A stretch of DNA of 64,000 bases, from positions 1,674,001 through 1,738,000 of the forward strand of contig OY282385.1 in NCBI GenBank assembly GCA_958295935.1. The letters are read 5' to 3'. Positions within the stretch are counted from its first letter, which is position 1. Each line of letters starts with the position of its first letter. The notes below the pieces were generated by a model that saw nothing but the letters and a program-made list of their open reading frames with translations, searched no databases and was not told where the DNA came from. Origin of the DNA: an uncultured Dehalococcoidia bacterium (GTDB taxonomy: Bacteria > Chloroflexota > Dehalococcoidia > Lucifugimonadales > Lucifugimonadaceae). Made by a program: the position numbers and the translations under genes. This document shows, piece after piece, positions 19,290 to 47,936 of this stretch.

Positions 19290-19683
19290 GGTTCGATTCA
19301 TCACCGTTCACAAGTCCGGGTCAGGGGATCCCTTGATCTCTTCATTGGCTAGGAGGTGCATGATTGTCCGCCGCAGTAGGCGGATAGGATTCCTTGCCTG
19401 GTCGGTAGAGATTCGGAGGAAACGAGCCTGCCAATCCTCCAGTCCGACGTGCCTGTGACCCTTTGGAGGCTTGCAAGGCTATCCTCAACCGACTCGCCAT
19501 ATTGGAGCATCCCGAAAAGTTCATAGTACAGTCCCAGCGGGGCCACCAACCTGTTTTGTACTCATAACTCCGTCGTTGCGGGGCGACCTCTGCGGCGTCC
19601 GCTCCGCCTGTGGGACTGTCGTCATGTATGAGCGGAATAGTGCGCGTGGTCTATCCTCGCGCGTGCGGGAGAGCCGGTCGTGG
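19290..19683. other. Gap before the CRISPR locus
   Basis: About 390 bp. It contains a degenerate stray CRISPR repeat (listed separately). A 66-codon minus-strand frame (19349-19549) looks coherent but matches nothing I know and has no clear start signal. No other element is seen. Confidence 0.3.
19648..19675 (-). repeat. Orphan degenerate CRISPR repeat
   Basis: 28 nt matching the array consensus at 26 positions: TATCCTCGCGCGTGCGGGAG differs from the consensus by one C to T and one G to A. It stands alone 548 bp before the array, with no recognisable repeat one period away on either side. It is on the side predicted to be the old end of the array. Confidence 0.75.
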
Positions 19684-20195: not shown

Positions 20196-23100
20196 GGTCT
20201 ATCCCCGCGCGTGCGGGGGAGCCACCGGCGTGGGAATCATCCAGACGCCACCGTGCGGTCTATCCCCGCGCGTGCGGGGGAGCCGTGGGCCCAGGTGCAG
20301 ATCACGCAGCACGTAGGGTCTATCCCCGCGCGTGCGGGGGAGCCGTCTGCGGCCTTCTCAGCCTGCGTCCCCTTGCGGGTCTATCCCCGCGCGTGCGGGG
20401 GAGCCTCGGGCTGTCTACTAGGCCCTGCCGGTTTGTGGGGTCTATCCCCGCGCGTGCGGGGGAGCCCTTCCCGCTGGATTGCTACGTATGCGGCAAGACG
20501 GTCTATCCCCGCGCGTGCGGGGGAGCCAACGGCTTTCATGTATCCGTTGGCGTAGTATTCGGTCTATCCCCGCGCGTGCGGGGGAGCCCGCAGCGGTTGC
20601 AATGCCATCTTGTGCGAGTTGCCTCTATCCCCGCGCGTGCGGGGGAGCCCCCTCCGATCTACGTGATGCCGGAACCGCGTTGGGTCTATCCCCGCGCGTG
20701 CGGGGGAGCCTTGTCCTTACCTTGCCCGCAGTTATAGCAATACGGTCTATCCCCGCGCGTGCGGGGGAGCCCCCGCGATGCTGGGATAATCCCCCCCCGT
20801 CCGGGGTCTATCCCCGCGCGTGCGGGGGAGCCCGCCGCCGGCCCTGTACCTGCACGCCCTGCACCGGTCTATCCCCGCGCGTGCGGGGGAGCCTAGCGCG
20901 AGAGTTGGGCGTGGCAGACATGACTGGGTCTATCCCCGCGCGTGCGGGGGAGCCCCCATCGTCATCAATCGTCAAAAACCGCTCACAGGTCTATCCCCGC
21001 GCGTGCGGGGGAGCCTGGTGCAACGCGCCGCGCGGGGGGGGCGCAAAGGGTCTATCCCCGCGCGTGCGGGGGAGCCGGGAAGGTCATTGACGACGACGGG
21101 CAGTTGAACGGTCTATCCCCGCGCGTGCGGGGGAGCCCCAACGTTATTTGGCGTATGGGGCGGATGCCACGGTCTATCCCCGCGCGTGCGGGGGAGCCTC
21201 CCCCGAAGTGGACGCGCTCGTATGTCAAGCAGGTCTATCCCCGCGCGTGCGGGGGAGCCTAGAACGAGACGAACTGCTGCATGACGTGATCGGGTCTATC
21301 CCCGCGCGTGCGGGGGAGCCTTCTTCCGTCTGCCGCCGGTCGATCTGTATCGGGGTCTATCCCCGCGCGTGCGGGGGAGCCCGCCCATGCCCCTATGTAA
21401 GTGGGAAAATGGCGGGTCTATCCCCGCGCGTGCGGGGGAGCCCTCGTAGCGCACCCGCCGAAAGGTGAAGCCGAATGTCTATCCCCGCGCGTGCGGGGGA
21501 GCCCAACGTTCAAGGTGTAGGCGATAGTAGTGGGAATGTCTATCCCCGCGCGTGCGGGGGAGCCCGTGTAAGGAGGATAGAGTTCGTAGCGTATCGGGGT
21601 CTATCCCCGCGCGTGCGGGGGAGCCGGTTGTGTGCGAATCACTGCCAGCAAGTCAACCGGTCTATCCCCGCGCGTGCGGGGGAGCCCAATGGAACGCCGC
21701 AACCGGGCTTGTAACGGAGGGTCTATCCCCGCGCGTGCGGGGGAGCCGCGGACGGAGGCCATTGAGTTACGTCATTACAGGTCTATCCCCGCGCGTGCGG
21801 GGGAGCCAACTTGCCGGCGTGCGCTGTCACTGACAACAACGGTCTATCCCCGCGCGTGCGGGGGAGCCCCTCTGACCTCCGACAAGGCGGAGTCGGCGAG
21901 GGGTCTATCCCCGCGCGTGCGGGGGAGCCGGTCATCATCGCATCGACCTCCGACGTGCCTGCGGTCTATCCCCGCGCGTGCGGGGGAGCCACGGCGCCGG
22001 GTCCTGCGCGTCGGTATTGAACGGGTCTATCCCCGCGCGTGCGGGGGAGCCAGAAGAGTCTGGGTCGCTTTGCGTACAAGGCAGGGTCTATCCCCGCGCG
22101 TGCGGGGGAGCCGCGGTGCAACGTATCGCCACCAATGGAACGATGGGTCTATCCCCGCGCGTGCGGGGGAGCCCGGGGCGGATTGCCCGTGTCACGCTGA
22201 CTATGAGGTCTATCCCCGCGCGTGCGGGGGAGCCTGGGGCATCGGCGCCCATATCTAGGGCGCGGCAGGTCTATCCCCGCGCGTGCGGGGGAGCCGCGTT
22301 CCAGCATAGGGCGGGTCACAGTAAATAAGGTCTATCCCCGCGCGTGCGGGGGAGCCTCCGCCGATGCGAGCAGCTCCGCGGTCCGGTCAGGTCTATCCCC
22401 GCGCGTGCGGGGGAGCCTGGTGGCGCGCCGTCAGGGATACGCCGGACGAGGGTCTATCCCCGCGCGTGCGGGGGAGCCGTAACCTGTGACATATCCCGCT
22501 TTGCGCCCGTGGGTCTATCCCCGCGCGTGCGGGGGAGCCCGTAGATCGTCCGTATAGGGCCGTTCACCAGGCGGTCTATCCCCGCGCGTGCGGGGGAGCC
22601 TGCGCCCTGTGATCACTACGTTGTCCAACCTGGGGTCTATCCCCGCGCGTGCGGGGGAGCCGTTTGAACGTCGCGGCCAAGCCGTCGAAGTGTGGGTCTA
22701 TCCCCGCGCGTGCGGGGGAGCCGCGGTGGTGTAAGCCTTACGTCACCTCGTCGGCGGTCTATCCCCGCGCGTGCGGGGGAGCCCGCCGCCGTACTGGTAG
22801 ACGCTCAAAGCGAGCGGGTCTATCCCCGCGCGTGCGGGGGAGCCGATTGCCAAGTCTGAACGCATCGCCAAGCAGGGGGTCTATCCCCGCGCGTGCGGGG
22901 GAGCCGCCCGTTGTATGAGCGGGAACGTGTATACCACTGGTCTATCCCCGCGCGTGCGGGGGAGCCTCGTGCCACTTCCCATCATCGGGTCAAGCACACG
23001 GTCTATCCCCGCGCGTGCGGGGGAGCCAGCGTCAAAGAGCGCTGTATTTCTGGTTCCGACGGTCTATCCCCGCGCGTGCGGGGGAGCCTTGCGGACATAC

Positions 23101-26100
23101 GTCCGGGGGTTCACGTTCGAGGGTCTATCCCCGCGCGTGCGGGGGAGCCTTTGAAATTGGCCTCGAGATTGCCCGAAAAGTGGGTCTATCCCCGCGCGTG
23201 CGGGGGAGCCTTTTACCCGAAGGGTTCGCCGCACGGCGCCAACGGTCTATCCCCGCGCGTGCGGGGGAGCCGTTCCCATAACCGCTGACCGCAACGTTCC
23301 CCACGGTCTATCCCCGCGCGTGCGGGGGAGCCGACGTATCGCTACGTCATACGGAACCCGCGTGCGGTCTATCCCCGCGCGTGCGGGGGAGCCCGGACAA
23401 GTCGGCAGTCAACGAGCCGGTTCCACGGTCTATCCCCGCGCGTGCGGGGGAGCCCGTTGTCAGCGTGCGGGCGGAAGATTCCACCGGGTCTATCCCCGCG
23501 CGTGCGGGGGAGCCTGATTGAATCAACCTATCCACGCGTTCGCGCAAGTCTATCCCCGCGCGTGCGGGGGAGCCCCACCGCGACAGGGTGCGCTCGTACA
23601 TAGTCGAAGTCTATCCCCGCGCGTGCGGGGGAGCCCGATGGTCGGATCCTCGGAGCGCTTCCCCCTGGAGTCTATCCCCGCGCGTGCGGGGGAGCCCCAG
23701 TGGTGACGGCCTCTGCCAACGCAGCCGGAAGTCTATCCCCGCGCGTGCGGGGGAGCCCTTCTCGTAGCGGTTCCAACCCAACGAGTCCCAAGTCTATCCC
23801 CGCGCGTGCGGGGGAGCCCTCAACGAAATGTGGCGATGGATTACCAGAGAAAGTCTATCCCCGCGCGTGCGGGGGAGCCCCTATTCGTTGCGGGTTCCAC
23901 ACCCCTGTAGGCGGTAACCGCTGACCGCAACGTTCCCCACGGTCTATCCCCGCGCGTGCGGGGGAGCCGCGGACGGAGGCCATTGAGTTACGGCATTACA
24001 GGGTCTATCCCCGCGCGTGCGGGGGAGCCGGAGGGCATCATGACCGAGAACAACTGCGAACGGGTCTATCCCCGCGCGTGCGGGGGAGCCGCAAATCGTC
24101 ATCTTCGCATTCTGGTGTGAACGGGTCTATCCCCGCGCGTGCGGGGGAGCCCCCGTTTGTGAGTAGCACGATGGAATCCAGCGGGGTCTATCCCCGCGCG
24201 TGCGGGGGAGCCGCTATCGACGTTCTGCGGGTTCGCGTTAGCCGGGGTCTATCCCCGCGCGTGCGGGGGAGCCGCGCCCCGTAGCGTCTGGCCCGCTCGG
24301 TCGTCGGGTCTATCCCCGCGCGTGCGGGGGAGCCCCCGAAGCCAGGAATGAGCAGCTGCCCCCCCGGGGTCTATCCCCGCGCGTGCGGGGGAGCCACCTC
24401 GACCGGAGCGACGTGGGCTACGTTGACCGGTCTATCCCCGCGCGTGCGGGGGAGCCGGAACTGTGGAGCGGCGGTGGGCTTCAGCGGCGGGTCTATCCCC
24501 GCGCGTGCGGGGGAGCCCGTCCCGCGTGAGTTCCACAGACTGGGAACATCGGTCTATCCCCGCGCGTGCGGGGGAGCCACCGTCACTCTGCTAATCGGAA
24601 GTCTGCGTTTCGGTCTATCCCCGCGCGTGCGGGGGAGCCTATAGGAATCCTGCCCTACCCCCCGCGTATACGGTCTATCCCCGCGCGTGCGGGGGAGCCC
24701 ATCCCATTCGTTCCCGTATCCGCTTATGGCAGGGTCTATCCCCGCGCGTGCGGGGGAGCCTCAGCGGGACGGACATATCAGGATTCACCGCCAGGTCTAT
24801 CCCCGCGCGTGCGGGGGAGCCTAACGGAGGATGCCCGACAGACGTCTTTGCAACGGTCTATCCCCGCGCGTGCGGGGGAGCCCCTATTCGTTGCGGGTTC
24901 CACACCCCTGTAGGCGGTCTATCCCCGCGCGTGCGGGGGAGCCATGCCTACGGCAGTTCCAGCGCCGCGTGGGATGGGTCTATCCCCGCGCGTGCGGGGG
25001 AGCCTGAGATGCCCAAAGCGGGCGTTCAGCGTGCCGGGGTCTATCCCCGCGCGTGCGGGGGAGCCGTACTGAACCCGCGACACCGCGAAGATCGACGCGG
25101 TCTATCCCCGCGCGTGCGGGGGAGCCGGTTTATCCCCACCCCCCACACTAACCCCCTAAGGTCTATCCCCGCGCGTGCGGGGGAGCCACGCGCCCGCGCT
25201 TAGGGTCGTCAAGAAAGTCAGGTCTATCCCCGCGCGTGCGGGGGAGCCCTATAGGCGCAGCAACCGCCGCAGCAACCCTATTCTCTATCCCCGCGCGTGC
25301 GGGGGAGCCATTGCCGCCGTCCAAGCCGCCGCTCCCGGGTGGGGTCTATCCCCGCGCGTGCGGGGGAGCCTTCGCGGCTTTCACGCTAATATATGCGTTC
25401 CGAGGTCTATCCCCGCGCGTGCGGGGGAGCCGAGCGTACATGTGCAAAGTGTAAATAGGAATACGGTCTATCCCCGCGCGTGCGGGGGAGCCCATTTGGG
25501 TTTGATTGCAAGTTTCCCAATGGCGGGTCTATCCCCGCGCGTGCGGGGGAGCCCGCAGCGGGGCCTTTACTTTTGAGCATAGCGGCGGTCTATCCCCGCG
25601 CGTGCGGGGGAGCCAGCGTTGTCCAACGTTGTCCATACTTCGTCCATGGTCTATCCCCGCGCGTGCGGGGGAGCCGCGCGGTTGCCCCCCAGCGGATGCT
25701 TCTAACAGGGTCTATCCCCGCGCGTGCGGGGGAGCCGCTTGTGGGTGATGCTTCCTGGCATGATAGGCGGGTCTATCCCCGCGCGTGCGGGGGAGCCGAG
25801 TTGCCGGATCACCGCGTAGTTCACGAGCGAGGTCTATCCCCGCGCGTGCGGGGGAGCCAGAACATTTGTAGCAATCGGGACGTATCCGCCGGGTCTATCC
25901 CCGCGCGTGCGGGGGAGCCGTTGATGACGTTCCCGTTGACGTGGAAGAAGCGGGTCTATCCCCGCGCGTGCGGGGGAGCCGCTTTGGGTTGTTGGTATCC
26001 GCAGAGTCTCGAAGGTCTATCCCCGCGCGTGCGGGGGAGCCTCTGCGAATAGTCTCGTCCGACCCGCTTATAAGGGTCTATCCCCGCGCGTGCGGGGGAG

Positions 26101-29100
26101 CCGGGTCAACTTCCTGTGCGGAAGTGTCTTGCCGGGGTCTATCCCCGCGCGTGCGGGGGAGCCGTCGAGCTGTGTTGAGTGAGCGGCAACGTCAAAGGTC
26201 TATCCCCGCGCGTGCGGGGGAGCCGGCAGGGCGCGTCCTCCGCGAATGACCGACGAAGGTCTATCCCCGCGCGTGCGGGGGAGCCCCATCAGGGGTGTGC
26301 ATCTCAAGCATATGTACCGGTCTATCCCCGCGCGTGCGGGGGAGCCTCGACCAATCTGAGAATTGCTTTGAACCTTGCCGGTCTATCCCCGCGCGTGCGG
26401 GGGAGCCTTCCTGTCGGTAAGTGAGACCGTAGTTAACCGGGGTCTATCCCCGCGCGTGCGGGGGAGCCTACCGGACGATCTACGCATTGGCGCGCGCTGA
26501 CGGTCTATCCCCGCGCGTGCGGGGGAGCCGGCGTGACAGGGCTAGGCGCTCGATAAACGTTGGGTCTATCCCCGCGCGTGCGGGGGAGCCGAGTCTCGCA
26601 CCTGGCGTGGTTGCATCCATCCAGGTCTATCCCCGCGCGTGCGGGGGAGCCGGTATTCCCGATGCCGTTCTGTCATGATGCTGAGGTCTATCCCCGCGCG
26701 TGCGGGGGAGCCAGCACGCGGGGAGCGGCAGACGGAGACGGGTTCGGTCTATCCCCGCGCGTGCGGGGGAGCCTTGTGCTTACTAACCGCTCGAACTCAT
26801 CCGGCGTGGGTCTATCCCCGCGCGTGCGGGGGAGCCTCCCGCCCCGTGCGAGCGTTCCACCGCGTCCACGGTCTATCCCCGCGCGTGCGGGGGAGCCCTA
26901 AGCTGACTGCATCGCGTCAGAGTAGCAAATGTCTATCCCCGCGCGTGCGGGGGAGCCTGCGAGATATGCCGGAAGAACTCGAACGGCAGGTGTCTATCCC
27001 CGCGCGTGCGGGGGAGCCTCACACCAGAATGCGAAGATGACGATTTGCTACTGTCTATCCCCGCGCGTGCGGGGGAGCCCGCGCTATGTCCTTCTCGTAG
27101 GCAGCCGCGACAAGGGTCTATCCCCGCGCGTGCGGGGGAGCCGCGAGAGAGCGGGCCGCCATGCTCCGTGGAGGAGGTCTATCCCCGCGCGTGCGGGGGA
27201 GCCTGCTTCGGCAGGCGGTGATATGCGGCAGGAAACGGTCTATCCCCGCGCGTGCGGGGGAGCCGGCGCCGTCCTCAAACTGAATTGGCATTCCTTCGGT
27301 CTATCCCCGCGCGTGCGGGGGAGCCCTTTCCGCCAACCTATCCGCCCATCAAGGCAACGGTCTATCCCCGCGCGTGCGGGGGAGCCGGGTTGACCAGCAC
27401 GATGGCGGAACCGCCGGAGGGTCTATCCCCGCGCGTGCGGGGGAGCCGTTCTGCCCAACGTGCGGGAAGAACGAGCTCAAGTCTATCCCCGCGCGTGCGG
27501 GGGAGCCACAATCAACCGCTTGTCAGCGTGAACCTTGTAGAGTCTATCCCCGCGCGTGCGGGGGAGCCCCGTCCGGCCCTCGACGATGCCCCCCCCGTCC
27601 GGGGTCTATCCCCGCGCGTGCGGGGGAGCCGAGGTGGAGTCCACTGACAACGCTATAACGGCGGGTCTATCCCCGCGCGTGCGGGGGAGCCAGGAAGGCG
27701 CCGGTGTTGCCGTCGGAACTGGAGGGTCTATCCCCGCGCGTGCGGGGGAGCCCGGACGTTGAAAGACAGGGCAAATCAAGCGGAGGGTCTATCCCCGCGC
27801 GTGCGGGGGAGCCCGTTGCATCCGTAGGTTCTTCGGGTTCGGGTTGGGTCTATCCCCGCGCGTGCGGGGGAGCCGGGCGCGGCGCGTGCGCTATTTCAAC
27901 GCGCTCAGGTCTATCCCCGCGCGTGCGGGGGAGCCCCATCAAGATAACGCAGGGCTTCAACCGGTGATCGGTCTATCCCCGCGCGTGCGGGGGAGCCTGG
28001 GCGCTGTGAACGTTGGAACCTGTGGACGTGGGTCTATCCCCGCGCGTGCGGGGGAGCCCCCAACGCGGGCGTTCCAGCAAGCGGGTGGTACGGTCTATCC
28101 CCGCGCGTGCGGGGGAGCCATGCCCGCCATATTGCTCATCCATAAGCAAACAGGTCTATCCCCGCGCGTGCGGGGGAGCCCGGGGATGTACGAGCCTAAT
28201 CGTCCGGGGCCTAGGTCTATCCCCGCGCGTGCGGGGGAGCCCGTTCTTCCTTTGCGTTCCTTGCGGCGTATCGCGGTCTATCCCCGCGCGTGCGGGGGAG
28301 CCTATGATTTGCCCCGTTCCGTAGGGGATTGTTGTGGTCTATCCCCGCGCGTGCGGGGGAGCCGATTAGGAGGTGGGGGAGTTACTGCGCACGCGCGGTC
28401 TATCCCCGCGCGTGCGGGGGAGCCCAGGCAGGTCGTCGCGGCGTTGGCGCACTCACAGGTCTATCCCCGCGCGTGCGGGGGAGCCACGATGACGTTATCA
28501 GGAAGCAAATCGAGGCAAGGTCTATCCCCGCGCGTGCGGGGGAGCCTCATCACATGGTGCGCCAATTCGTGAAGCAACAGGTCTATCCCCGCGCGTGCGG
28601 GGGAGCCTTGTACAATGCGGCGTGAGTAGGTCACCGCGTTGGTCTATCCCCGCGCGTGCGGGGGAGCCCGGGCCTGCACGTGTACGCCGGCGGCGGCCCA
28701 CGGTCTATCCCCGCGCGTGCGGGGGAGCCTGTACGGCGTAGCAACTGCTGGCCTCGCAGCCGGGTCTATCCCCGCGCGTGCGGGGGAGCCTTAGGGATTC
28801 GCGCTCATTCCAAACAACGAGCGGGTCTATCCCCGCGCGTGCGGGGGAGCCGCTTCTTCTTCACGCAACGCAAGAAGGAAGATGGGTCTATCCCCGCGCG
28901 TGCGGGGGAGCCAATACGCCGGCGGCGCCGCGTCCAGGCGCGCGGGGTCTATCCCCGCGCGTGCGGGGGAGCCCCGCTGGGAGCTCGTCCGCCGACGAAA
29001 CTTCCGGGTCTATCCCCGCGCGTGCGGGGGAGCCAATCTTCCGCACTGTGGGGGCTACGCTCAAGACGGTCTATCCCCGCGCGTGCGGGGGAGCCCGATT

Positions 29101-32100
29101 GCCCGCCTACCGACTCGCACGGCGGCGAGGTCTATCCCCGCGCGTGCGGGGGAGCCCTCGAACAAGATGGAGTATGCCCATGACTGAGAGGTCTATCCCC
29201 GCGCGTGCGGGGGAGCCACAGCCGTAGGCCGGGGCGTAGGAAGATTCGTCGGTCTATCCCCGCGCGTGCGGGGGAGCCCCGGTGACAACCGCGTGAGCAT
29301 TCAGAACATCGGGTCTATCCCCGCGCGTGCGGGGGAGCCCGCAGCGGTTGCAACCCCCTCTTGTGCGAGTTGGGTCTATCCCCGCGCGTGCGGGGGAGCC
29401 CACCGCGGCTATCTGTGTGATCTCTGAATCGAGGGTCTATCCCCGCGCGTGCGGGGGAGCCCCGCAACGTGCGGTATGTGGGCCAAAAATCTGGGGTCTA
29501 TCCCCGCGCGTGCGGGGGAGCCTCGATAGGCCAAGACTTGCCCCCGCCGACGCGGGGTCTATCCCCGCGCGTGCGGGGGAGCCCCGCTATGACGACCGAC
29601 CGACCCGACCCGCAGTGGTCTATCCCCGCGCGTGCGGGGGAGCCACCATCGGCCGCGTGCGAATGTCCACCCCACTGGGTCTATCCCCGCGCGTGCGGGG
29701 GAGCCAGGTTCTTGCGAAGCCCCACAACGGCAGCCCAGGGTCTATCCCCGCGCGTGCGGGGGAGCCCTGATGATGCAGGATATGGGAACGGTGGCGCGGG
29801 GTCTATCCCCGCGCGTGCGGGGGAGCCCGGTATACGGCTTCGATGATTTCGAGCAGCGCGGGTCTATCCCCGCGCGTGCGGGGGAGCCGGCGGGGTCACG
29901 CTGAGCGCCTCCGACGCTTACGGTCTATCCCCGCGCGTGCGGGGGAGCCTACACGGAATGGGCTGATTTGGACCGAGATGCAGGTCTATCCCCGCGCGTG
30001 CGGGGGAGCCCGCTATCCTCAAGGGCGGATTGCGAAATAAACGGGTCTATCCCCGCGCGTGCGGGGGAGCCCGGGGCATCCAAGCCCCACCGTCACTCTG
30101 CTAGGGTCTATCCCCGCGCGTGCGGGGGAGCCTAGCGCGGGGATGCCCAACAAAGGAAAGTATAGGGTCTATCCCCGCGCGTGCGGGGGAGCCCTGTGGG
30201 TGCAGGAGCAGGTCGCCTGCCCGCACGGGTCTATCCCCGCGCGTGCGGGGGAGCCTGGAGTGTGGTGGGCATGGGCCGGATGCGCTCCGGTCTATCCCCG
30301 CGCGTGCGGGGGAGCCTCGAACCGCGCAGCCGCCGCCATCGCATCGCGCGGTCTATCCCCGCGCGTGCGGGGGAGCCTCATCGAGGCATCGTCCAATCCG
30401 GACGACTTGGGGTCTATCCCCGCGCGTGCGGGGGAGCCCTGAACTAACCACAGTTGTCACCGCTTGCCAATGGTCTATCCCCGCGCGTGCGGGGGAGCCT
30501 TGCAAGCGCGTTGTCACAGTTCCCGAGCGACCGGTCTATCCCCGCGCGTGCGGGGGAGCCTGGACGAAGTATGGATAACGTTGGATAAAGCGCGGTCTAT
30601 CCCCGCGCGTGCGGGGGAGCCGAGCCCGCGTGGACGAACTCCACGCCGAGATCAGGTCTATCCCCGCGCGTGCGGGGGAGCCTTGATCGTTATCTACGAG
30701 TGCTACTGTGCGAAGGGTCTATCCCCGCGCGTGCGGGGGAGCCAAACCCAAATGCCTTGTCAACCTTGCGGGCGTAGGTCTATCCCCGCGCGTGCGGGGG
30801 AGCCCCGTAAGCACGCCCGCCCGTTCAATCCCCGCCGGGTCTATCCCCGCGCGTGCGGGGGAGCCGGCACGATGGACAGGTCCCTCGTCACCGCGTACGG
30901 TCTATCCCCGCGCGTGCGGGGGAGCCTGCTGAAGAAGAACGCCAAGCATCCCCGCGAAAGGGGTCTATCCCCGCGCGTGCGGGGGAGCCTTGCCCTGTGG
31001 TGGGGCAACCAGCCCGTTCCGGGGTCTATCCCCGCGCGTGCGGGGGAGCCGCCACGATGACTTCGGGAACTGCATATACGTTGGGTCTATCCCCGCGCGT
31101 GCGGGGGAGCCCCATACGCGGGGAGATTCAACAACTCACCCGCCGGTCTATCCCCGCGCGTGCGGGGGAGCCTTATATTGAAATGTCATGTCGGTTGTAT
31201 TCGAAGGTCTATCCCCGCGCGTGCGGGGGAGCCCCTGGAATCAATGTCAACCCGCGTGACTTCACGGGTCTATCCCCGCGCGTGCGGGGGAGCCAGATTC
31301 AAGCCCTTGCCGCCCGTATGGTAGACGGGTCTATCCCCGCGCGTGCGGGGGAGCCCGATAGCGCCCCCATCGGGATCAGAGATGTAGCGGTCTATCCCCG
31401 CGCGTGCGGGGGAGCCCCGACGGACGACCCGGACGCGGTGACCTGCGCCGGTCTATCCCCGCGCGTGCGGGGGAGCCGACGAGGCGGCGTACAAGCGGGT
31501 CAAGGGAACGGGTCTATCCCCGCGCGTGCGGGGGAGCCGGAGATCGAGGGGAACGACCATGACTAAGACAAGGTCTATCCCCGCGCGTGCGGGGGAGCCC
31601 TCAGCAGAGTCATCTCGCGTCTTGCTACGGAGGGTCTATCCCCGCGCGTGCGGGGGAGCCTTGGATCCGGTCCAGACTACGACGGGGAGCGCCGGTCTAT
31701 CCCCGCGCGTGCGGGGGAGCCGCAAGGTGTAGGGTTACCTTAACGGCTCACCCGGGTCTATCCCCGCGCGTGCGGGGGAGCCAGAGATCCATTACACCGC
31801 TCATTGTGTTCCTCCGGTCTATCCCCGCGCGTGCGGGGGAGCCGGGGACGTACTCGGAAACACGCTTCTGGGCACCGGTCTATCCCCGCGCGTGCGGGGG
31901 AGCCGGCCGGAACGCGGCGATGACGACATGTGTGACGGGTCTATCCCCGCGCGTGCGGGGGAGCCGCGTCGAAGGTTCCCGCATACCGCTCCGTCCGGGG
32001 TCTATCCCCGCGCGTGCGGGGGAGCCCGCAGTATCTACATGACGGGATTCGTACTCGGAGGTCTATCCCCGCGCGTGCGGGGGAGCCTGCGTTCCATCTT

Positions 32101-35100
32101 CATAGCGTTCGGGTCGAGCGGGTCTATCCCCGCGCGTGCGGGGGAGCCTGACCGGCACAGCGTGGATCCGGGGCAGCGCGGGGTCTATCCCCGCGCGTGC
32201 GGGGGAGCCTTAAACAGGGCGCTGAACGCGGCGAGAGCGGCAGGTCTATCCCCGCGCGTGCGGGGGAGCCCCCGGCCGGGTGCGCTGTATGGACGACTGA
32301 CAGGGGTCTATCCCCGCGCGTGCGGGGGAGCCGTTTTCAAGTTGATTCACAGAACGCACGTTTACGGTCTATCCCCGCGCGTGCGGGGGAGCCTACGCCA
32401 CGTTGAAACTCGTAACAACATGGCGGGGTCTATCCCCGCGCGTGCGGGGGAGCCCACTGACACACAAACCCGCGCTGCAACTCGTGCGGTCTATCCCCGC
32501 GCGTGCGGGGGAGCCTGCTCGCATTGCTGGAACACGCCCCAATCGTGAGGTCTATCCCCGCGCGTGCGGGGGAGCCGTGACCACCACCGGGGAGCCTATC
32601 GACGTGTGCGGTCTATCCCCGCGCGTGCGGGGGAGCCTGCTGCGTGTATTGCGATCGTTCATAACCACCCGGTCTATCCCCGCGCGTGCGGGGGAGCCAC
32701 CACTAGCCGCCGACCCGAGCAGCAGCCCGGGGGTCTATCCCCGCGCGTGCGGGGGAGCCATTCCACCGCGGTGTTGATCCCGTCAAGACCAAGGTCTATC
32801 CCCGCGCGTGCGGGGGAGCCTACGCGGTTTCAGAGGTTGCGCTAGAATACTAAGGTCTATCCCCGCGCGTGCGGGGGAGCCGAACTCTTCCCGTATGCTT
32901 CTGATGCTGTCGGGGGTCTATCCCCGCGCGTGCGGGGGAGCCCAGTCGCTATGTGGCGGGCGAGTCAGATAGTCGGGTCTATCCCCGCGCGTGCGGGGGA
33001 GCCCGCCGCGTCCAATCGTTCCGTCCGTATGCACGCGGTCTATCCCCGCGCGTGCGGGGGAGCCTCGTTGTGGGCCAGTTGGGTGTCGTCGCAGCCCGGT
33101 CTATCCCCGCGCGTGCGGGGGAGCCTACTTAGGCGCCCTGTTGGGCGTGAAGCGTCTAGGTCTATCCCCGCGCGTGCGGGGGAGCCACGTTGACGCTATC
33201 ACCGGCGGCCCCACAGCTGGGTCTATCCCCGCGCGTGCGGGGGAGCCGAAGTATCGTCTGAAACAACTCACTGTGCTGGAGGTCTATCCCCGCGCGTGCG
33301 GGGGAGCCTCTACGGCGTTGCCGTTGTCGCCGGGTCTATCCCCGCGCGTGCGGGGGAGCCGCAGCTCGTTCTTGTAACTGCGCGTTCGTCCGGGGTCTAT
33401 CCCCGCGCGTGCGGGGGAGCCCGCGTCCGGGCGTGGGCATTCCACCATCGCCGGGGTCTATCCCCGCGCGTGCGGGGGAGCCGCAGCCGTCACGACTGTA
33501 GGGTACGCCATCAAAGGTCTATCCCCGCGCGTGCGGGGGAGCCACCCCCGTTTTGGGAACGTTCAGACAATTGACGGGTCTATCCCCGCGCGTGCGGGGG
33601 AGCCAGATGACGGCGGCTGAGGTTCAGGCCCATCTGCGGTCTATCCCCGCGCGTGCGGGGGAGCCGTGCGCGGCATGGTGGTGCTGAACGAATGGCAGGG
33701 TCTATCCCCGCGCGTGCGGGGGAGCCTCGCAGCCGGCGAAGCAGTGCACGAGAAGGCCGGGTCTATCCCCGCGCGTGCGGGGGAGCCCGCCGCCTGGTCG
33801 AGGGCGATCTCCCTACGCAGGGTCTATCCCCGCGCGTGCGGGGGAGCCGCTACGCGGGATTCTCGATGACCAGCAACGCGGGGTCTATCCCCGCGCGTGC
33901 GGGGGAGCCTTCAGACCCTCGTTTACTAAGTTGCCCTACCAGGGTCTATCCCCGCGCGTGCGGGGGAGCCCGCAACCGGCGCCATCGGCGAACCAGCCAC
34001 CTGGGTCTATCCCCGCGCGTGCGGGGGAGCCCTTTCCCTCATCGAATCCCGTCCTGCGCCCAAAGGTCTATCCCCGCGCGTGCGGGGGAGCCTGCGGACA
34101 AGATGCTTTGGTAGATATGCCAATGGGTCTATCCCCGCGCGTGCGGGGGAGCCGATGTATCGCTCATTGGGAACGATAGGCACCGGGGTCTATCCCCGCG
34201 CGTGCGGGGGAGCCGTGTGGCAGCATGGAATACGTCCAACTTCACATGGTCTATCCCCGCGCGTGCGGGGGAGCCCTGCGCAGCGTCTCAACGTCAATCG
34301 GGTAATCCGGTCTATCCCCGCGCGTGCGGGGGAGCCTGACCGCCCTTCTCTCCCAACCAGTCCGTCCAGGGTCTATCCCCGCGCGTGCGGGGGAGCCTAG
34401 CGGGTCGTCGTGCTGCCCGTAGGGATGCCGGGTCTATCCCCGCGCGTGCGGGGGAGCCGGTACTCATCCCGTTTCTCGCTCCAGCGGTTAGGGTCTATCC
34501 CCGCGCGTGCGGGGGAGCCACGTGAGCACCGGCAGGTTGTGGACGTGGTAAGGGTCTATCCCCGCGCGTGCGGGGGAGCCGTCAGATGTACAGCCTATCG
34601 GCCCACTGGGAGGGGTCTATCCCCGCGCGTGCGGGGGAGCCGTCTCTCTCAGGATTACCTCGGCCTCCCCTGCAGGTCTATCCCCGCGCGTGCGGGGGAG
34701 CCGGCTGGTTGTGTGCGCTGTGTGGCGAAGGGCGGGGTCTATCCCCGCGCGTGCGGGGGAGCCGACTTCCCTCCTTCGGCATATGCATGATCATCGAGGT
34801 CTATCCCCGCGCGTGCGGGGGAGCCCATATCAGCGAGGACGATTACTCGTTAATCCCGGGTCTATCCCCGCGCGTGCGGGGGAGCCATACTCCAACGTAT
34901 TGACTCCCAGTTGCGCCCGGGTCTATCCCCGCGCGTGCGGGGGAGCCCGTTTCTTGCACGCTGCGGCTTGCGATGAAACCGGTCTATCCCCGCGCGTGCG
35001 GGGGAGCCCCCACCTATGGGAACCGGACAATCCGAATCAGAGGTCTATCCCCGCGCGTGCGGGGGAGCCGCCCCGCGATGCGCCAACCCTTCGTTCCGAC

Positions 35101-38100
35101 AGGGTCTATCCCCGCGCGTGCGGGGGAGCCCCCACCTATGGGAACCGGACAATCCGAATCAGAGGTCTATCCCCGCGCGTGCGGGGGAGCCTACCGGACG
35201 ATACGCCGTACTGTGAGGCCGTACGGTCTATCCCCGCGCGTGCGGGGGAGCCCGATCTGCCCCAGCAGTCCTGCGTCGCGCCCAGGGTCTATCCCCGCGC
35301 GTGCGGGGGAGCCATGGTCGCTGTGGTCGCGGGTCATGGTGACTAGGGTCTATCCCCGCGCGTGCGGGGGAGCCGTGTAGGGAACGAATGTCCCATTGCC
35401 CTTGTTCGGTCTATCCCCGCGCGTGCGGGGGAGCCGCGGCGGACATATCCCCAGCCGCCAACGCGGTGGGTCTATCCCCGCGCGTGCGGGGGAGCCTAAC
35501 TGTGGACGTGTGGGACGGCGAAAGCCAGAGGTCTATCCCCGCGCGTGCGGGGGAGCCGCTTGATCCGCTTGGTCTTGCCCAATAGGAAACGGTCTATCCC
35601 CGCGCGTGCGGGGGAGCCACCTATCTGATAACGGGGCTTGATTACAGCGACGGTCTATCCCCGCGCGTGCGGGGGAGCCGGACTTCGAGATCAACTTCGG
35701 CTTGTCGAGTCGGGTCTATCCCCGCGCGTGCGGGGGAGCCTATGCCGCGATGGTCATCGGCTGTCGGAACAGCGGTCTATCCCCGCGCGTGCGGGGGAGC
35801 CTGGTTCCGGTTGGATGCGAGGATCGCGCTTTCGGGTCTATCCCCGCGCGTGCGGGGGAGCCCCGCGACGAGGTGATTGAGTTTCCAGGTGATACGGTCT
35901 ATCCCCGCGCGTGCGGGGGAGCCTCGGTCAACGTCAACTTGTTACCCTTCGCCTGGGGTCTATCCCCGCGCGTGCGGGGGAGCCAGTTTCGGCGGTCTAT
36001 GCAGGAGATTCGTCAACGGTCTATCCCCGCGCGTGCGGGGGAGCCCCTTGTCTCCCTTGTCTCCCTTGTCTCCGTCCCGGTCTATCCCCGCGCGTGCGGG
36101 GGAGCCCGTTTCCTCCCTCAGCCCCTTCATGGCGATCTGGGTCTATCCCCGCGCGTGCGGGGGAGCCTGTTTGGCGTTCTTGGACACTGAAAGTGAATAG
36201 GGTCTATCCCCGCGCGTGCGGGGGAGCCCTCACTCCAGACAGCACCTTCAACAACATTAGAGGTCTATCCCCGCGCGTGCGGGGGAGCCCGTCACGAGTT
36301 GCGTGCGAAAACGTACAGGGCGGGTCTATCCCCGCGCGTGCGGGGGAGCCGTTGAGTTGAGTCGTAGGGAACCGCTGCCGTCAGGTCTATCCCCGCGCGT
36401 GCGGGGGAGCCTTGAAGAGTACAGCGTCAAGCGCGGCGAACTGGGGTCTATCCCCGCGCGTGCGGGGGAGCCTGACGGCGCCCGTCTACAGAGTTGCGTT
36501 GTACGGGTCTATCCCCGCGCGTGCGGGGGAGCCTCCACGTCGGCCATCGGGTACTCGAACGCCAGGGGTCTATCCCCGCGCGTGCGGGGGAGCCCGGGTG
36601 CAACGTCACCTTCCCGCCATGTATCCCGGTCTATCCCCGCGCGTGCGGGGGAGCCTCTCCTGACAGAGCTTCCACACGTCGGCCAGACGGTCTATCCCCG
36701 CGCGTGCGGGGGAGCCTGACGTATGACTTCCCGAATCACAAAGCCGTACGGTCTATCCCCGCGCGTGCGGGGGAGCCGCCTCTTCCCACTTGATCTGCCT
36801 GCCCGCTCCGGGTCTATCCCCGCGCGTGCGGGGGAGCCGCCATATGCTCACTAACATGTCCTCGGATTCTAGGTCTATCCCCGCGCGTGCGGGGGAGCCC
36901 ATTTGGCGTCCTCGAAGGTGGCGCTGGTAAACGGTCTATCCCCGCGCGTGCGGGGGAGCCGACGTCCGGGGAAGATCGCCCGTCCTGGCCACGGGTCTAT
37001 CCCCGCGCGTGCGGGGGAGCCACTAGTGCGATTATCCACACAATGGCCCGTCCGGGTCTATCCCCGCGCGTGCGGGGGAGCCTCACCCGCCGCCGCGTTA
37101 GCCGCCTCGATGACCGGTCTATCCCCGCGCGTGCGGGGGAGCCCGGCGGGCGCCATATGCGAACACCGGCACAGCGGGTCTATCCCCGCGCGTGCGGGGG
37201 AGCCAGTTTGACAGAGAGGCGTTAAAATCAACGTTGCGGTCTATCCCCGCGCGTGCGGGGGAGCCTGCTTTGCGGTCTTGCCGGCTTCGGCGGCGCGGGG
37301 TCTATCCCCGCGCGTGCGGGGGAGCCCCATCATTCTTCACTCTGTGCGCTAAAGCATCAGGTCTATCCCCGCGCGTGCGGGGGAGCCCCTCCGCCTCTGA
37401 TACCGGACGACCCGGTTGACGGTCTATCCCCGCGCGTGCGGGGGAGCCTACCGGATGCCATAGCGTGCGGCAAGGATATGGGGTCTATCCCCGCGCGTGC
37501 GGGGGAGCCGTGGACGGAAACCGGACGATGACGGGGCGGGTGGGTCTATCCCCGCGCGTGCGGGGGAGCCAGGATCGCCAACACTTCGCCCTCGGCGGTC
37601 AACGGTCTATCCCCGCGCGTGCGGGGGAGCCTCTAACGGGTTTATCGTGACACGCGATGCATCCGGTCTATCCCCGCGCGTGCGGGGGAGCCTGTACCTT
37701 TGCGTTCTTCAATGCCGCAGCGTTGGGTCTATCCCCGCGCGTGCGGGGGAGCCGAGGTATCCACCAGATGGATGCCCTCGTAAGGAGGTCTATCCCCGCG
37801 CGTGCGGGGGAGCCGCGAGGACGCGCTCGCGGTGGACCTCCGCGAGGGGTCTATCCCCGCGCGTGCGGGGGAGCCTACGTGACCTGGACGCGCGTCCGGC
37901 CCGAATACGGTCTATCCCCGCGCGTGCGGGGGAGCCGCCAGAATGTGCGCTGTTGCGTTGAGCAGCACGGGTCTATCCCCGCGCGTGCGGGGGAGCCGCC
38001 AGGATATGGCATCATGCCCTCGATGGTAACGGTCTATCCCCGCGCGTGCGGGGGAGCCCGATGTAACGGATCACCCTGCCCGCAAGTGTGAGGTCTATCC

Positions 38101-41053
38101 CCGCGCGTGCGGGGGAGCCGATGGCCTGCTTGCGCTGCGCCGACTGGCGGAGGGTCTATCCCCGCGCGTGCGGGGGAGCCTGAGAACGCTTGCAAGACTT
38201 GCGGACATCCAAAGGTCTATCCCCGCGCGTGCGGGGGAGCCGTCCTAAAGTAAAGGTGAATCTTTGCCCTCAACGGTCTATCCCCGCGCGTGCGGGGGAG
38301 CCTCTCGGAAGCCGAGCACGACCGCGGTAGAACGAGGTCTATCCCCGCGCGTGCGGGGGAGCCGGGGAGCGCCGTATGTACGAGATAGACCCGAACGGTC
38401 TATCCCCGCGCGTGCGGGGGAGCCTTCATCATCGCTAGCCGGTCAATAACAGCCTGCGTCTATCCCCGCGCGTGCGGGGGAGCCTCTGGTTCGTTCGTTC
38501 GTATGGGACTGGGACACGGTCTATCCCCGCGCGTGCGGGGGAGCCACCTGTATCGATTGCATCTCTCTCTGGCGGCTGGGTCTATCCCCGCGCGTGCGGG
38601 GGAGCCAGTCATACGTCAACCGGAAGCGCTCCCCGATGCGGTCTATCCCCGCGCGTGCGGGGGAGCCCCAGCCGTCCATACCAATGACGCGTTTCCACAG
38701 GGTCTATCCCCGCGCGTGCGGGGGAGCCCGATTTCTGAAGTACGCGTCGGGGAAAGCGTTTGGTCTATCCCCGCGCGTGCGGGGGAGCCGGTCTGCTTGA
38801 GCGTCTAGCGGTTGCCAGTACGGGTCTATCCCCGCGCGTGCGGGGGAGCCGGGTTGGGAACTAACGACTCGTCATCTACCGACGGTCTATCCCCGCGCGT
38901 GCGGGGGAGCCTTTGCGCCTTGCGTTCCTGATCTTCCCGTAGTGGGTCTATCCCCGCGCGTGCGGGGGAGCCTCGCGGTCGTCACTTCCAGCCCTGACTA
39001 CTCTGGGTCTATCCCCGCGCGTGCGGGGGAGCCGATCGGGGCCGCCCACCCTGCCCTAGTCCATAAGGTCTATCCCCGCGCGTGCGGGGGAGCCTGAAAG
39101 ACTGTCACCTTTACGGTATCGCCGCGCGGTCTATCCCCGCGCGTGCGGGGGAGCCGGGCCTGTGTGCGGGCTGCCGGACATAGGAACGGGTCTATCCCCG
39201 CGCGTGCGGGGGAGCCTTGAATTACATTTAACGCCTCTTCCCCGCCTTCGGTCTATCCCCGCGCGTGCGGGGGAGCCCAGTTGCATACGTCCGCAAGTGT
39301 CTCGGGAAACGGTCTATCCCCGCGCGTGCGGGGGAGCCGGCACGCCGCGTACTGGATGCAGCTGCTAGGCGGGTCTATCCCCGCGCGTGCGGGGGAGCCG
39401 ATAGACCGCATTGCCCACACAGAGCCGTTTCGGGTCTATCCCCGCGCGTGCGGGGGAGCCCGTCTCTGTCATCATCCATGAATCTGTCCATCCGGTCTAT
39501 CCCCGCGCGTGCGGGGGAGCCCTGTGCTGTGAGCCGCCTATCTGGCGGTCTCGGGGTCTATCCCCGCGCGTGCGGGGGAGCCTTGACAAGCCGCGCGTCC
39601 CAGACCACAGGGTAGGGTCTATCCCCGCGCGTGCGGGGGAGCCCGGATATGGCGCTAGCGTTCTCCACGATGAACGGGTCTATCCCCGCGCGTGCGGGGG
39701 AGCCTGACGCGGACGCCATCGAGGCCGAGCGGCGGGAGGTCTATCCCCGCGCGTGCGGGGGAGCCGAATTCATGGACGTTTATCCGGGCGCAAAGGTGGG
39801 TCTATCCCCGCGCGTGCGGGGGAGCCCGCTGTTGAGGTCGTTCAGCATCCTCTGTTCACGGTCTATCCCCGCGCGTGCGGGGGAGCCCATTGGGGATTTG
39901 CATTGCCGGATCGCAGGTCGGGTCTATCCCCGCGCGTGCGGGGGAGCCTCCCCCCGATATCGCGCAGCCGCTCGCTCCCGGGGTCTATCCCCGCGCGTGC
40001 GGGGGAGCCGCGGTGAGATTCGCCCGCTCGGTTGCCGCTTCGGGTCTATCCCCGCGCGTGCGGGGGAGCCGCGCGGTCGGTAGCCCCGCCTACAAGGAAC
40101 AGCGGTCTATCCCCGCGCGTGCGGGGGAGCCCTGCGATTCTGGCGGGCGCGGCGGCGATTGCGAGGTCTATCCCCGCGCGTGCGGGGGAGCCGGGCTGGC
40201 AGACGGCGGGCATGGTCGGACCGCAGGTCTATCCCCGCGCGTGCGGGGGAGCCAAAAACTCATCCTCCGCGTACGCGCGCGGCAACGGTCTATCCCCGCG
40301 CGTGCGGGGGAGCCTCCAGGAACGTCTCACCGCGCCAATGGGCGCGAGGTCTATCCCCGCGCGTGCGGGGGAGCCCGTCCTGCCCTGCCCGCCTGCCCTG
40401 CCCAGCCCCTCAACCGGTCTATCCCCGCGCGTGCGGGGGAGCCAACGCTCAGCAATCGACTATCCAACACCATCGCGGTCTATCCCCGCGCGTGCGGGGG
40501 AGCCGCGTTCGGCTTTGGCGGTTACTTCCCTGACGGCGGTCTATCCCCGCGCGTGCGGGGGAGCCGCGTTCACCTGTCGGGTGTAGTGTGAAACCATGGG
40601 TCTATCCCCGCGCGTGCGGGGGAGCCTCGCAGATTACAATACGGCCAACCACGTGAGCAGGTCTATCCCCGCGCGTGCGGGGGAGCCCAAGTGGGAAGAG
40701 GCGCAACGCGTGGTGGACGCGGTCTATCCCCGCGCGTGCGGGGGAGCCTCGGGGCCGCTCGCGAGTCCGCATTGCTGGCAGGGTCTATCCCCGCGCGTGC
40801 GGGGGAGCCTCTATCAACATGAGTGTCGCCATGCTCGACCTGGGTCTATCCCCGCGCGTGCGGGGGAGCCGATCGCAGGGCTGGAAATCTTCTGGGGGGA
40901 GAAGGTCTATCCCCGCGCGTGCGGGGGAGCCCCCCTTCCCACTACGCCGCTGCAGCTCAATCACGGTCTATCCCCGCGCGTGCGGGGGAGCCCGCCCTAT
41001 AGAACACTGCCAGAAGGTCGGGTGGGGTCTATCCCCGCGCGTGCGGGGGAGCC
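20196..41053 (-). CRISPR. Type I-E CRISPR array, 342 repeats and 341 spacers
   Basis: I followed every repeat start through the array: 342 repeats of 28 nt and 341 spacers. Of the repeat-to-repeat distances 322 are exactly 61 nt; eight are 60, five are 62, three are 63, and single ones are 52, 68 and 89, which sums exactly to the observed span. The plus-strand core is TATCCCCGCGCGTGCGGGGG flanked by GGTC and AGCC. The reverse complement, ending GGGGATAGACC, is the crRNA sense form by comparison with known I-E repeats, so transcription is leftward and the young end is at 41053 beside cas2. Repeats are essentially identical at both ends; variation is confined to the first one or two plus-strand bases. 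The stem is CCCCGC/GCGGGG. Long open frames across the array are period artefacts. Confidence 0.99.
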
Positions 41054-41093
41054 CCTTGGGACTTTACACTATTTGTCGCCGCTTTTGAGGTGG
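41054..41093. promoter_or_regulatory. Forty-base gap between cas2 and the first repeat
   Basis: This is all the non-coding sequence available for a leader. On the minus strand it contains a moderately AT-rich stretch, ACAAATAGTGTAAAG, where TAGTGT could act as a -10 box; any -35 would lie inside cas2. The leader function must therefore extend into cas2, or the array is transcribed with the operon. Confidence 0.4.
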
Positions 41094-41381
41094 TCAGCGG
41101 TACTTTACGAGGTACACGCCGTCGGCATCTACGATGTCTTTTGGGGCTTCTCCCAGGGTGAGGATTCGCTGCTCGCCTACGGCTTCAGAGTCCCGCCAGG
41201 TCATCACTATCGAGCCTTGGCGGAGTTCGTAATACCACCGGGCCAGAACATCCCAGATTCTTTCTCGTATCCCATCGGTCATTTGCGGTGCGGTGTACAC
41301 TCCGGGCGCTATTTCCAGCATCGTCGAGGTCAGGAATCCCCGATAGCGGGCGGCCACGTTGACGGTAACGACCACGGTCAT
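41094..41381 (-). CDS. cas2: CRISPR-associated endoribonuclease-fold protein Cas2 (type I-E)
   Basis: 95 residues, the usual size of the I-E branch of Cas2 (CT1978/E. coli type). The N-terminus MTVVVTVNVAARYRGFLTS and the following LEIAPGVYTAP are diagnostic. The centre GIRERIWDVLARWY and the GSIVMTWRD strand follow the family pattern. As the dimer between two Cas1 dimers it forms the spacer-integration complex. No DnaQ domain is fused to it, unlike some I-E Cas2 proteins; a separate DnaQ-like gene is present beyond cas3. It follows cas1 after 21 nt and ends 40 nt before the array. Confidence 0.95.
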   Translation of the reverse strand: MTVVVTVNVAARYRGFLTSTMLEIAPGVYTAPQMTDGIRERIWDVLARWYYELRQGSIVMTWRDSEAVGEQRILTLGEAPKDIVDADGVYLVKYR

Positions 41382-42387: not shown

Positions 42388-42475
42388 AACCATACCCCGC
42401 GCGTGCGGGGAACCTCTGCAATCCTGTCCGCTGTAGCTTCTGTGTGCGGTCTGTCCCCGCGTTTGCGGGGAATCG
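42388..42475 (-). CRISPR. Two-repeat mini-array between cas6e and cas1
   Basis: Two degenerate repeats lie 60 nt apart. The left one (42388-42414) holds CCCCGCGCGTGCGGGG, identical to the array stem; the right one (42448-42475) holds GGTCTGTCCCCGCGTTTGCG followed by GGGAAT. The 33 nt between them (42415-42447) is spacer-like. Both are in the same orientation as the main array, so the cas mRNA carries two crRNA-sense hairpins between cas6e and cas1. The flanks read GGTTCC rather than GGCTCC, as in other I-E repeat subtypes. Confidence 0.8.
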
Positions 42476-47549: not shown

Positions 47550-47748
<199 letters not shown>

Positions 47749-47846
47749 GTTTTTTTGGTCTTGCTCGGCTGATATTAGCATAACACTTATGTATGGTACA
47801 GGGAAACCCCTTCCTTAATCAAGTCTCTGGGTCGGATCGTTCTAAG

Positions 47847-47936
47847 GATTCCCCCACTACCGTGGGGATAGGCCCTGTTACGCTAACATGCCATGCGCGC
47901 GAGCGCGAGGTTCCCCCGCACACGCGGGGATAGACG
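47847..47936 (+). CRISPR. Two-repeat mini-array at the 3' end of cas3
   Basis: Repeat 1 (47847-47874) and repeat 2 (47909-47936) lie 62 nt apart with a 34-nt spacer. Repeat 2 matches the crRNA-sense consensus at 25 of 28 positions (TTCCCCCGCACACGCGGGGA core). Repeat 1 matches at about 20, and its stem change CCCCA/TGGGG is compensatory. Both are in crRNA-sense orientation on the plus strand, opposite to the main array. The cas3 stop codon (47878-47880) falls inside the spacer. Confidence 0.8.

What the first reader, a model, noticed from the sequence alone, without database searches (positions are those of the whole stretch)
20196..41053. A type I-E array of 342 repeats in one unbroken run
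Repeat starts were followed one by one and the distances sum exactly to the array span. Such a length is far above the tens of repeats usual for I-E loci. All repeats, including those at the old end, keep the core intact, whereas old ends normally decay. This suggests very active adaptation, strong selection on repeats, or homogenising recombination. Complete cas1, cas2 and Cascade genes fit a working system.
Basis: seen in the sequence. Interest (0 to 1): 0.85.

Follow-up and report, generated by a model that had tools for sequence, protein, structure and literature searches.

The report
Giant CRISPR array with self-regulating guide RNA
A probably sponge-associated Chloroflexota bacterium carries a genuine 342-repeat CRISPR virus memory bank, very large but of a known kind, and beside it a conserved crRNA-like element that appears to guide the bacterium's own CRISPR complex to switch down its own cas genes, which would give a natural way to test how such large memories are kept supplied with Cas protein.

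Summary
The array is real. There are 342 repeats in one run at 20196-41053, and positions 3-28 are identical in all 342. There are 341 spacers, 340 of them distinct. It is next to a complete type I-E cas operon in a 2.75-Mb single-contig Dehalococcoidia/SAR202-type genome. Unique spacers and recurrent sampling of the same targets argue against assembly expansion. The size is extreme but not unprecedented: relatives carry about 310, 212, 140 and 127 repeats, and Haliangium has 587 spacers. No homogenising process is needed. Repeat variants occur only at the two PAM-side bases, often start at off-length spacers and are inherited in runs, as integration slippage would give. Core identity still exceeds that of relatives (P about 0.002), suggesting a young or trimmed array.

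The more interesting find is outside the coordinates. At 47847-47936 (+) lies a degenerate two-repeat mini-array between cas3 and cas8e. Its guide matches the cas8e-upstream promoter region with PAM AAG at positions 1-5, 7-11 and 13-14. It mismatches at 6 and 12, the bases Cascade flips out. Twelve of 13 loci show such a species-specific match. This is a CreR-type cas autorepressor by sequence evidence. That CreR helps sustain giant arrays is untested.

The parts
20196..41053 (-). main CRISPR array, 342 repeats / 341 spacers; crRNA sense on minus strand; leader end at 41053, old end at 20196
41054..41093 (-). short leader (40 bp) between cas2 stop and first repeat; ends in CCAAGG, with a similar AAGG or TAGG ending in most relatives
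19648..19675 (-). solitary degenerate repeat (2 mismatches) 548 bp beyond the old end
23880..23940 (-). 61-nt composite spacer: head of spacer 291 + CC (repeat end) + spacer 265; reads as a 33-nt deletion after a rearrangement
41094..41381 (-). cas2e
   Evidence: TIGR01873
41403..42320 (-). cas1e, E/H/D catalytic motifs present in alignment
   Evidence: TIGR03638
42388..42475 (-). second degenerate mini-array in cas6-cas1 gap (repeat keeping handle - 32-nt spacer - repeat without handle); no target found in own genome
42513..43271 (-). cas6e
   Evidence: TIGR01907
43268..44044 (-). cas5e
   Evidence: TIGR01868
44047..45225 (-). cas7e
   Evidence: TIGR01869
45228..45851 (-). cas11 (cse2)
   Evidence: TIGR02548
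45848..47458 (-). cas8e (cse1)
   Evidence: TIGR02547
47847..47874 (+). psi-R1 of CreR-like mini-array; keeps a six-pair hairpin, one pair changed from G-C to A-U, and the 5' handle
47875..47908 (+). psi-spacer of CreR-like RNA; guide TGTTACGCTAACAT... begins at 47876
47909..47936 (+). psi-R2 of CreR-like mini-array; keeps 3' hairpin; overlaps the 3' end of cas3
47754..47785 (-). predicted CreR target (32-nt protospacer; matched stretch 47785-47772), PAM AAG at 47788-47786
47793..47822 (-). putative cas8e-direction promoter: TTGATT (47822-47817), 18 bp, TACCAT (47798-47793); weak on its own (8/12), better promoters at the like place in several relatives
47878..50628 (-). cas3 (HD + helicase)

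Best explanation
[quoted passage not shown] Integration occurs at the cas2 side, with a PAM of AA followed by a base other than A. Repeat variants are inherited ruler slips, and a few recombination events are visible. A second, divergently oriented two-repeat mini-array between cas3 and cas8e encodes a crRNA-like RNA of the CreR type. Cas6 would cut it into a guide, Cascade would load the guide, and the partial match (12 matched bases within the first 14, plus PAM) would let Cascade sit on the cas8e promoter and repress it without triggering destruction. When canonical crRNAs take up Cascade, repression would ease, so Cas supply would follow crRNA load. Shown by sequence: array, cas genes, mini-array anatomy, and species-specific target matches. 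Inferred: transcription, processing, repression and the feedback.
For: The array was verified repeat by repeat, with a complete cas set and motif residues. The position-29 base is depleted of A in the window and in nine relatives, as expected for PAM AAB. Twelve spacer pairs share at least 13-mers against 0.8 expected, including versions with point changes. Repeat-variant transitions coincide with off-length spacers (7 of 14 against 12 of 327, P = 1e-6). CreR: in 11 of 13 loci the guide pairs with its own cas8e-upstream site (mean own score 11.8, cross-species 3.0, shuffled 95th percentile 5.0), and in a twelfth after correcting L015. Positions 1, 2, 4, 5, 7, 8 and 11 match in 11/11, position 6 in 2/11 and position 12 in 1/11. 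All 12 PAMs are AAB. The target is the only full match in the 2.75-Mb genome. psi-R1 keeps the handle (92%) but not the stem-loop sequence (61%); psi-R2 keeps the stem-loop (96%) but not the handle (60%), the pattern described for CreA genes (PMC8501985).
Against: No RNA or expression data exist. The window's own promoter match is weak (8/12) and the strict scan finds none. The target is 328 bp upstream of the annotated cas8e start, with a 56-aa ORF between; in L009 it is 36 bp. Three of 12 loci show no promoter-like pair near the target. No protospacer was found for four recurrent spacers in IMG/VR, and only weak hits (E 0.06) for 8 kb of the array in phages. The second mini-array at 42388-42475 has no target.
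Confidence: 0.82

Rival explanations
1. The mini-array is a CreA-type antitoxin: the repressed promoter drives a toxin (RNA or small protein) between the target and cas8e, making the cas genes addictive, rather than tuning cas expression.
For: Most relatives carry a gap of about 300-630 bp between target and cas8e, and eight of them encode there a small Cys-rich, zinc-finger-like ORF.
Against: In L009 the target is only 36 bp from cas8e, leaving little room for a toxin gene. In the window the space holds only a 56-aa ORF matching no Pfam family. L025 and L028 have unrelated ORFs there.
Confidence: 0.15
2. The mini-array is a decaying relic of an ordinary second array, and its match to the promoter is chance.
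For: L012 has an ordinary 12-repeat array at this site with no promoter match. The second mini-array in the window also has no target.
Against: Species-specific matches in 12 loci, with mismatches pooled at positions 6 and 12 and consistent PAMs; shuffled guides reached at most 9 in 2000 trials against own scores of 10-15. Handle and hairpin are kept on complementary repeats.
Confidence: 0.03
3. The 342-repeat length is an assembly expansion.
For: The genome is very probably a metagenome assembly, like its named relatives, and reads were not available.
Against: 340 of 341 spacers are distinct, so duplication of units is excluded as the source of the length. Relatives from other assemblies carry about 310 and 212 repeats. 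The array lies in one 2.75-Mb contig.
Confidence: 0.03
4. Homogenising recombination or selection keeps all repeats identical.
For: 0 core-variant events against 6.3 expected from ten relatives, P = 0.0018.
Against: Spacers are all different on each side of the repeats, and variants at positions 1-2 persist in runs. Copying from the leader-end repeat plus a young or trimmed array gives the same result.
Confidence: 0.08

Closest known systems
CreR, cas-regulating mini-CRISPR RNAs of types I-B, I-E and V-A (Liu et al. 2023 Cell Host Microbe; read here only through reviews PMC12737573, PMC12948488, PMC13131331)
   Same: mini-CRISPR beside the cas genes, partial complementarity to a cas promoter region with PAM
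   Different: found here in Dehalococcoidia/SAR202-type Chloroflexota, next to an array of 342 repeats; function not tested
CreA of CreTA/CrePA modules (PMC8501985; PMC12737573)
   Same: two divergently degenerated repeats, seed pairing at positions 1-5 and 7-11, PAM
   Different: no toxin gene identified in the window; target region leads into cas8e
Haliangium ochraceum 587-spacer array (PMC8047081, PMC10076291)
   Same: single giant array
   Different: longer; different phylum; its subtype not checked here
CRISPR arrays of marine sponge metagenomes (PMC5099237: longest 169 spacers)
   Same: probable habitat type, long arrays
   Different: about twice that maximum; that study's assemblies were fragmented by its own account

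Membership tests
Type I-E CRISPR-Cas | cas3, cas8e, cas11, cas7, cas5, cas6e, cas1e, cas2e set | tested here: met
   all named by NCBIfam; seven I-E models pass their cut-offs, cas3 passes the core and HD domain models (PRK09694 below its own cut-off)
Type I-E CRISPR-Cas | 28/29-nt palindromic repeat, 32-33-nt spacers, PAM-derived base at position 29 | tested here: met
Type I-E CRISPR-Cas | interference against matching DNA | not testable with these tools
   no expression or infection data; no confident protospacers found
CreR | mini-CRISPR with degenerate repeats that keep handle and hairpin, near cas genes | tested here: met
CreR | PAM plus partial complementarity to the cas promoter region | tested here: met
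   complementarity and PAM met in the window and 11 relatives; the promoter itself is weak in the window (8/12)
CreR | RNA made, processed by Cas6, represses cas with Cascade | not testable with these tools
   needs small-RNA sequencing and a reporter assay
CreTA/CrePA | repressed toxin gene or RNA under the targeted promoter | tested here: inconclusive
   no known toxin in the window gap; small Cys-rich ORF in eight relatives untested; no search for toxin RNAs was made

The most novel reading that the evidence does not exclude
CreR feedback ties Cascade supply to crRNA load and so removes the dilution penalty that is thought to limit array length, allowing giant arrays in this clade. The CreR-controlled promoter also drives a new small zinc-finger-like protein in several relatives.
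Probability: 0.2. Interest if true: 0.82.

Novelty: new member of a known kind. Interest (0 to 1): 0.55.

Why it matters
Theory holds that very long arrays should be penalised because each crRNA gets a smaller share of Cascade (PMC5749868; PMC8047081). This clade combines arrays of 65-342 repeats with a conserved sequence signature of RNA-guided cas autorepression, and it also includes relatives without that element. In the loci compared, those with a mini-array at this site have longer arrays (n = 7 against 5, P = 0.018 two-sided, not corrected for descent or assembly type). It is a natural system in which the dilution question can be tested. The 12-locus covariation, with mismatches falling at Cascade's flipped bases, is also sequence evidence that CreR-type control is under selection in uncultured bacteria.

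Tried and rejected
Assembly expansion: rejected, because spacers are unique. Decayed array between 19648 and 20196: the distance is close to nine units, but no repeats lie in register. Target for the second mini-array (42388-42475): none in the window or genome above control counts. CreR function for L012's 12-repeat array: no match, so it is an ordinary second array and serves as a negative control. Protospacers: four recurrent spacer patterns in IMG/VR gave nothing, and 8 kb of the array against phages gave only weak hits, E 0.06. Rfam: no match at the mini-array. Correlation of the mini-array with array length: suggestive only. It is confounded with long-read assemblies and descent, and the group with the element counts G429 (L012), whose antisense array shows no target. 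The scoring scheme was written after matches had been seen by eye, so its controls (cross-species, shuffled) carry the weight, not the raw scores.

Full report
Observation. The window holds 342 copies of GGTCTATCCCCGCGCGTGCGGGGGAGCC (+ strand) from 20196 to 41053 with 341 spacers. Positions 3-28 are the same in every copy; 16 copies differ at position 1 or 2. Spacing is 61 bp in 322 of 341 intervals. One spacer occurs twice, two units apart; all the others are unique.

Setting. The window lies in a single-contig genome of 2,750,180 bases, 95% complete. Nearest Cas1 relatives are uncultured Dehalococcoidia and SAR202 genomes, 92% identical at best. That the host is a sponge symbiont is inferred from the kinds of records matched, not shown here. 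The cas genes are all on the minus strand in the order cas3, cas8e, cas11, cas7, cas5, cas6, cas1, cas2, array. Cas1 aligns with E. coli-type Cas1 through the E, H and D motifs, and Cas3 keeps HD, Walker and DExH motifs. rpoB and rpoC lie beyond the old end.

Polarity and age. The repeat resembles the reverse complement of the usual I-E crRNA-sense repeat (own knowledge), so the RNA sense is minus and the leader is the 40 bp between cas2 and the array. In relatives, core variants cluster at the far end (for example copies 193-312 of G429 and 137-140 of L018), as expected for an old end. The window has none: 0 events against 6.3 expected from relatives, P = 0.0018. One degenerate copy survives alone at 19648. 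A young or trimmed array is the simplest reading.

How variants arise. Of 14 places where positions 1-2 change between neighbours, 7 fall at off-length spacers, against 12 of the other 327 intervals (P = 1.4e-6). Four of the seven variant runs or singles begin exactly at a 32-nt spacer. That is what a 27-bp instead of 28-bp duplication would give: the last repeat base is then the first base of the new spacer, and later repeats inherit it. This mechanism is inferred; the other three begin at normal spacers, and the return to the consensus base is not fully explained.

Adaptation history. Twelve spacer pairs share 13 or more bases (0.8 expected). Spacers 192 and 335 are the same protospacer with four changes; 280 and 316 differ by one change and one base of offset; 230 and 278 are the same site on opposite strands. 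Such repeated sampling of changing targets speaks for real adaptation. Spacer 281 (61 nt) is composite, evidence of at least one rearrangement. The position-29 base avoids A in the window and in nine relatives, which suggests PAM AAB.

Not unique. Relatives have about 310 (G429), 212 (G431), 140, 127, 98 and 98 repeats; the longest two are interrupted once (262 bp and 1427 bp). Published: 587 spacers in Haliangium ochraceum and typically under 50 in bacteria (PMC8047081; PMC10076291), and at most 169 in sponge metagenomes (PMC5099237). The array is extreme, not new in kind.

A CreR-type element. On the + strand, between cas8e and cas3, lies psi-R1 (47847-47874), a 34-nt psi-spacer and psi-R2 (47909-47936). 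The guide TGTTACGCTAACAT matches TGTTATGCTAATAT at 47785-47772 (minus) with PAM AAG; the two mismatches are at positions 6 and 12. No other place in the 64 kb scores near it (12 against 7.5), and no other place in the genome matches fully. Thirteen loci carry a mini-array or array at this site and could be tested. With each guide tested only against its own cas8e-upstream region, 11 match and a twelfth after correcting the unit boundary in L015. The exception, L012, has an ordinary 12-repeat array. The guides differ among most species, so guide and target have changed together. Own scores average 11.8, against 3.0 across species and at most 9 in 2000 shuffles. The highest cross-species score (11) joins L027 and L018, which share related guides and targets. 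Mismatches pool at positions 6 and 12, the bases that do not take part in Cascade pairing (PMC8501985 describes seed 1-5 and 7-11 for CreA). psi-R1 keeps the 5' handle and psi-R2 the 3' hairpin, each losing the part a mature crRNA does not need. RNAfold still predicts a hairpin in most psi-R1 copies although their sequence has changed; it is weak in L026 and L027.

What it probably does. In seven loci a promoter-like pair in the cas8e direction can be named whose -10 box ends 0-13 bp before the target or which the target follows closely (for example TTGACA-18-TATAAT in L028, 0 bp; L009, 7 bp; window, 7 bp but only 8/12); in three others the best pair lies downstream of the target start, and three loci show none. 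Binding there would block cas8e-operon transcription; pairing over about 14 positions is expected to be too short for Cas3 action. Reviews describe CreR as loosening when crRNAs compete for Cascade (PMC12737573). Under that model a 341-crRNA array would raise Cas supply. This step is inference. In the loci compared, those with a mini-array or array at this site have longer main arrays (P = 0.018, n = 12), but descent and assembly type are confounded, and one of the seven (G429) has no target match, so this is only a lead.

Open points. Eight relatives carry a small Cys-rich ORF between target and cas8e, which keeps a toxin-guard reading alive for them. The second mini-array at 42388-42475 has the same anatomy but no target. 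No viral protospacers were found. The original CreR paper was not in the library, so it is cited through reviews.

Noticed in passing
42388-42475 (-): Second degenerate mini-array in the cas6-cas1 gap with the same handle/hairpin division, but no target in the genome; single degenerate repeats at about the same place in L009, L010, L019 and L024.
   Followed up: partly
47550-47720 (-): 56-aa ORF between the CreR target and cas8e whose start ([21 protein letters not shown]) resembles a DnaQ-like exonuclease N-terminus by eye; no Pfam match; perhaps a truncated gene.
   Followed up: partly
L011, L014, L015, L016, L018, L024, L026, L027 between mini-array and cas8e: Small Cys-rich, zinc-finger-like ORF downstream of the CreR target; only a sub-threshold B-box hit for L027 in Pfam (L016 and L027 tested).
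   Followed up: partly
L012 3736-4433: Ordinary 12-repeat array, antisense to cas genes, at the site of the mini-array, with a small possible regulator ORF before cas8e.
   Followed up: partly
23880-23940: 61-nt composite spacer joining parts of two other spacers of the same array.
   Followed up: yes
L009 (before 11234), window 41054-41093: Very short leaders (about 8 bp in L009, 40 bp in the window) ending in AAGG next to the first repeat.
   Followed up: partly
59959-61875 (-): Type I restriction-modification N6 methylase fused to a specificity domain.
   Followed up: no
55619-59545 (-): 1308-aa TPR protein with GreA/B C-terminal-like and PIN-TPR-GreABC-associated domains.
   Followed up: no
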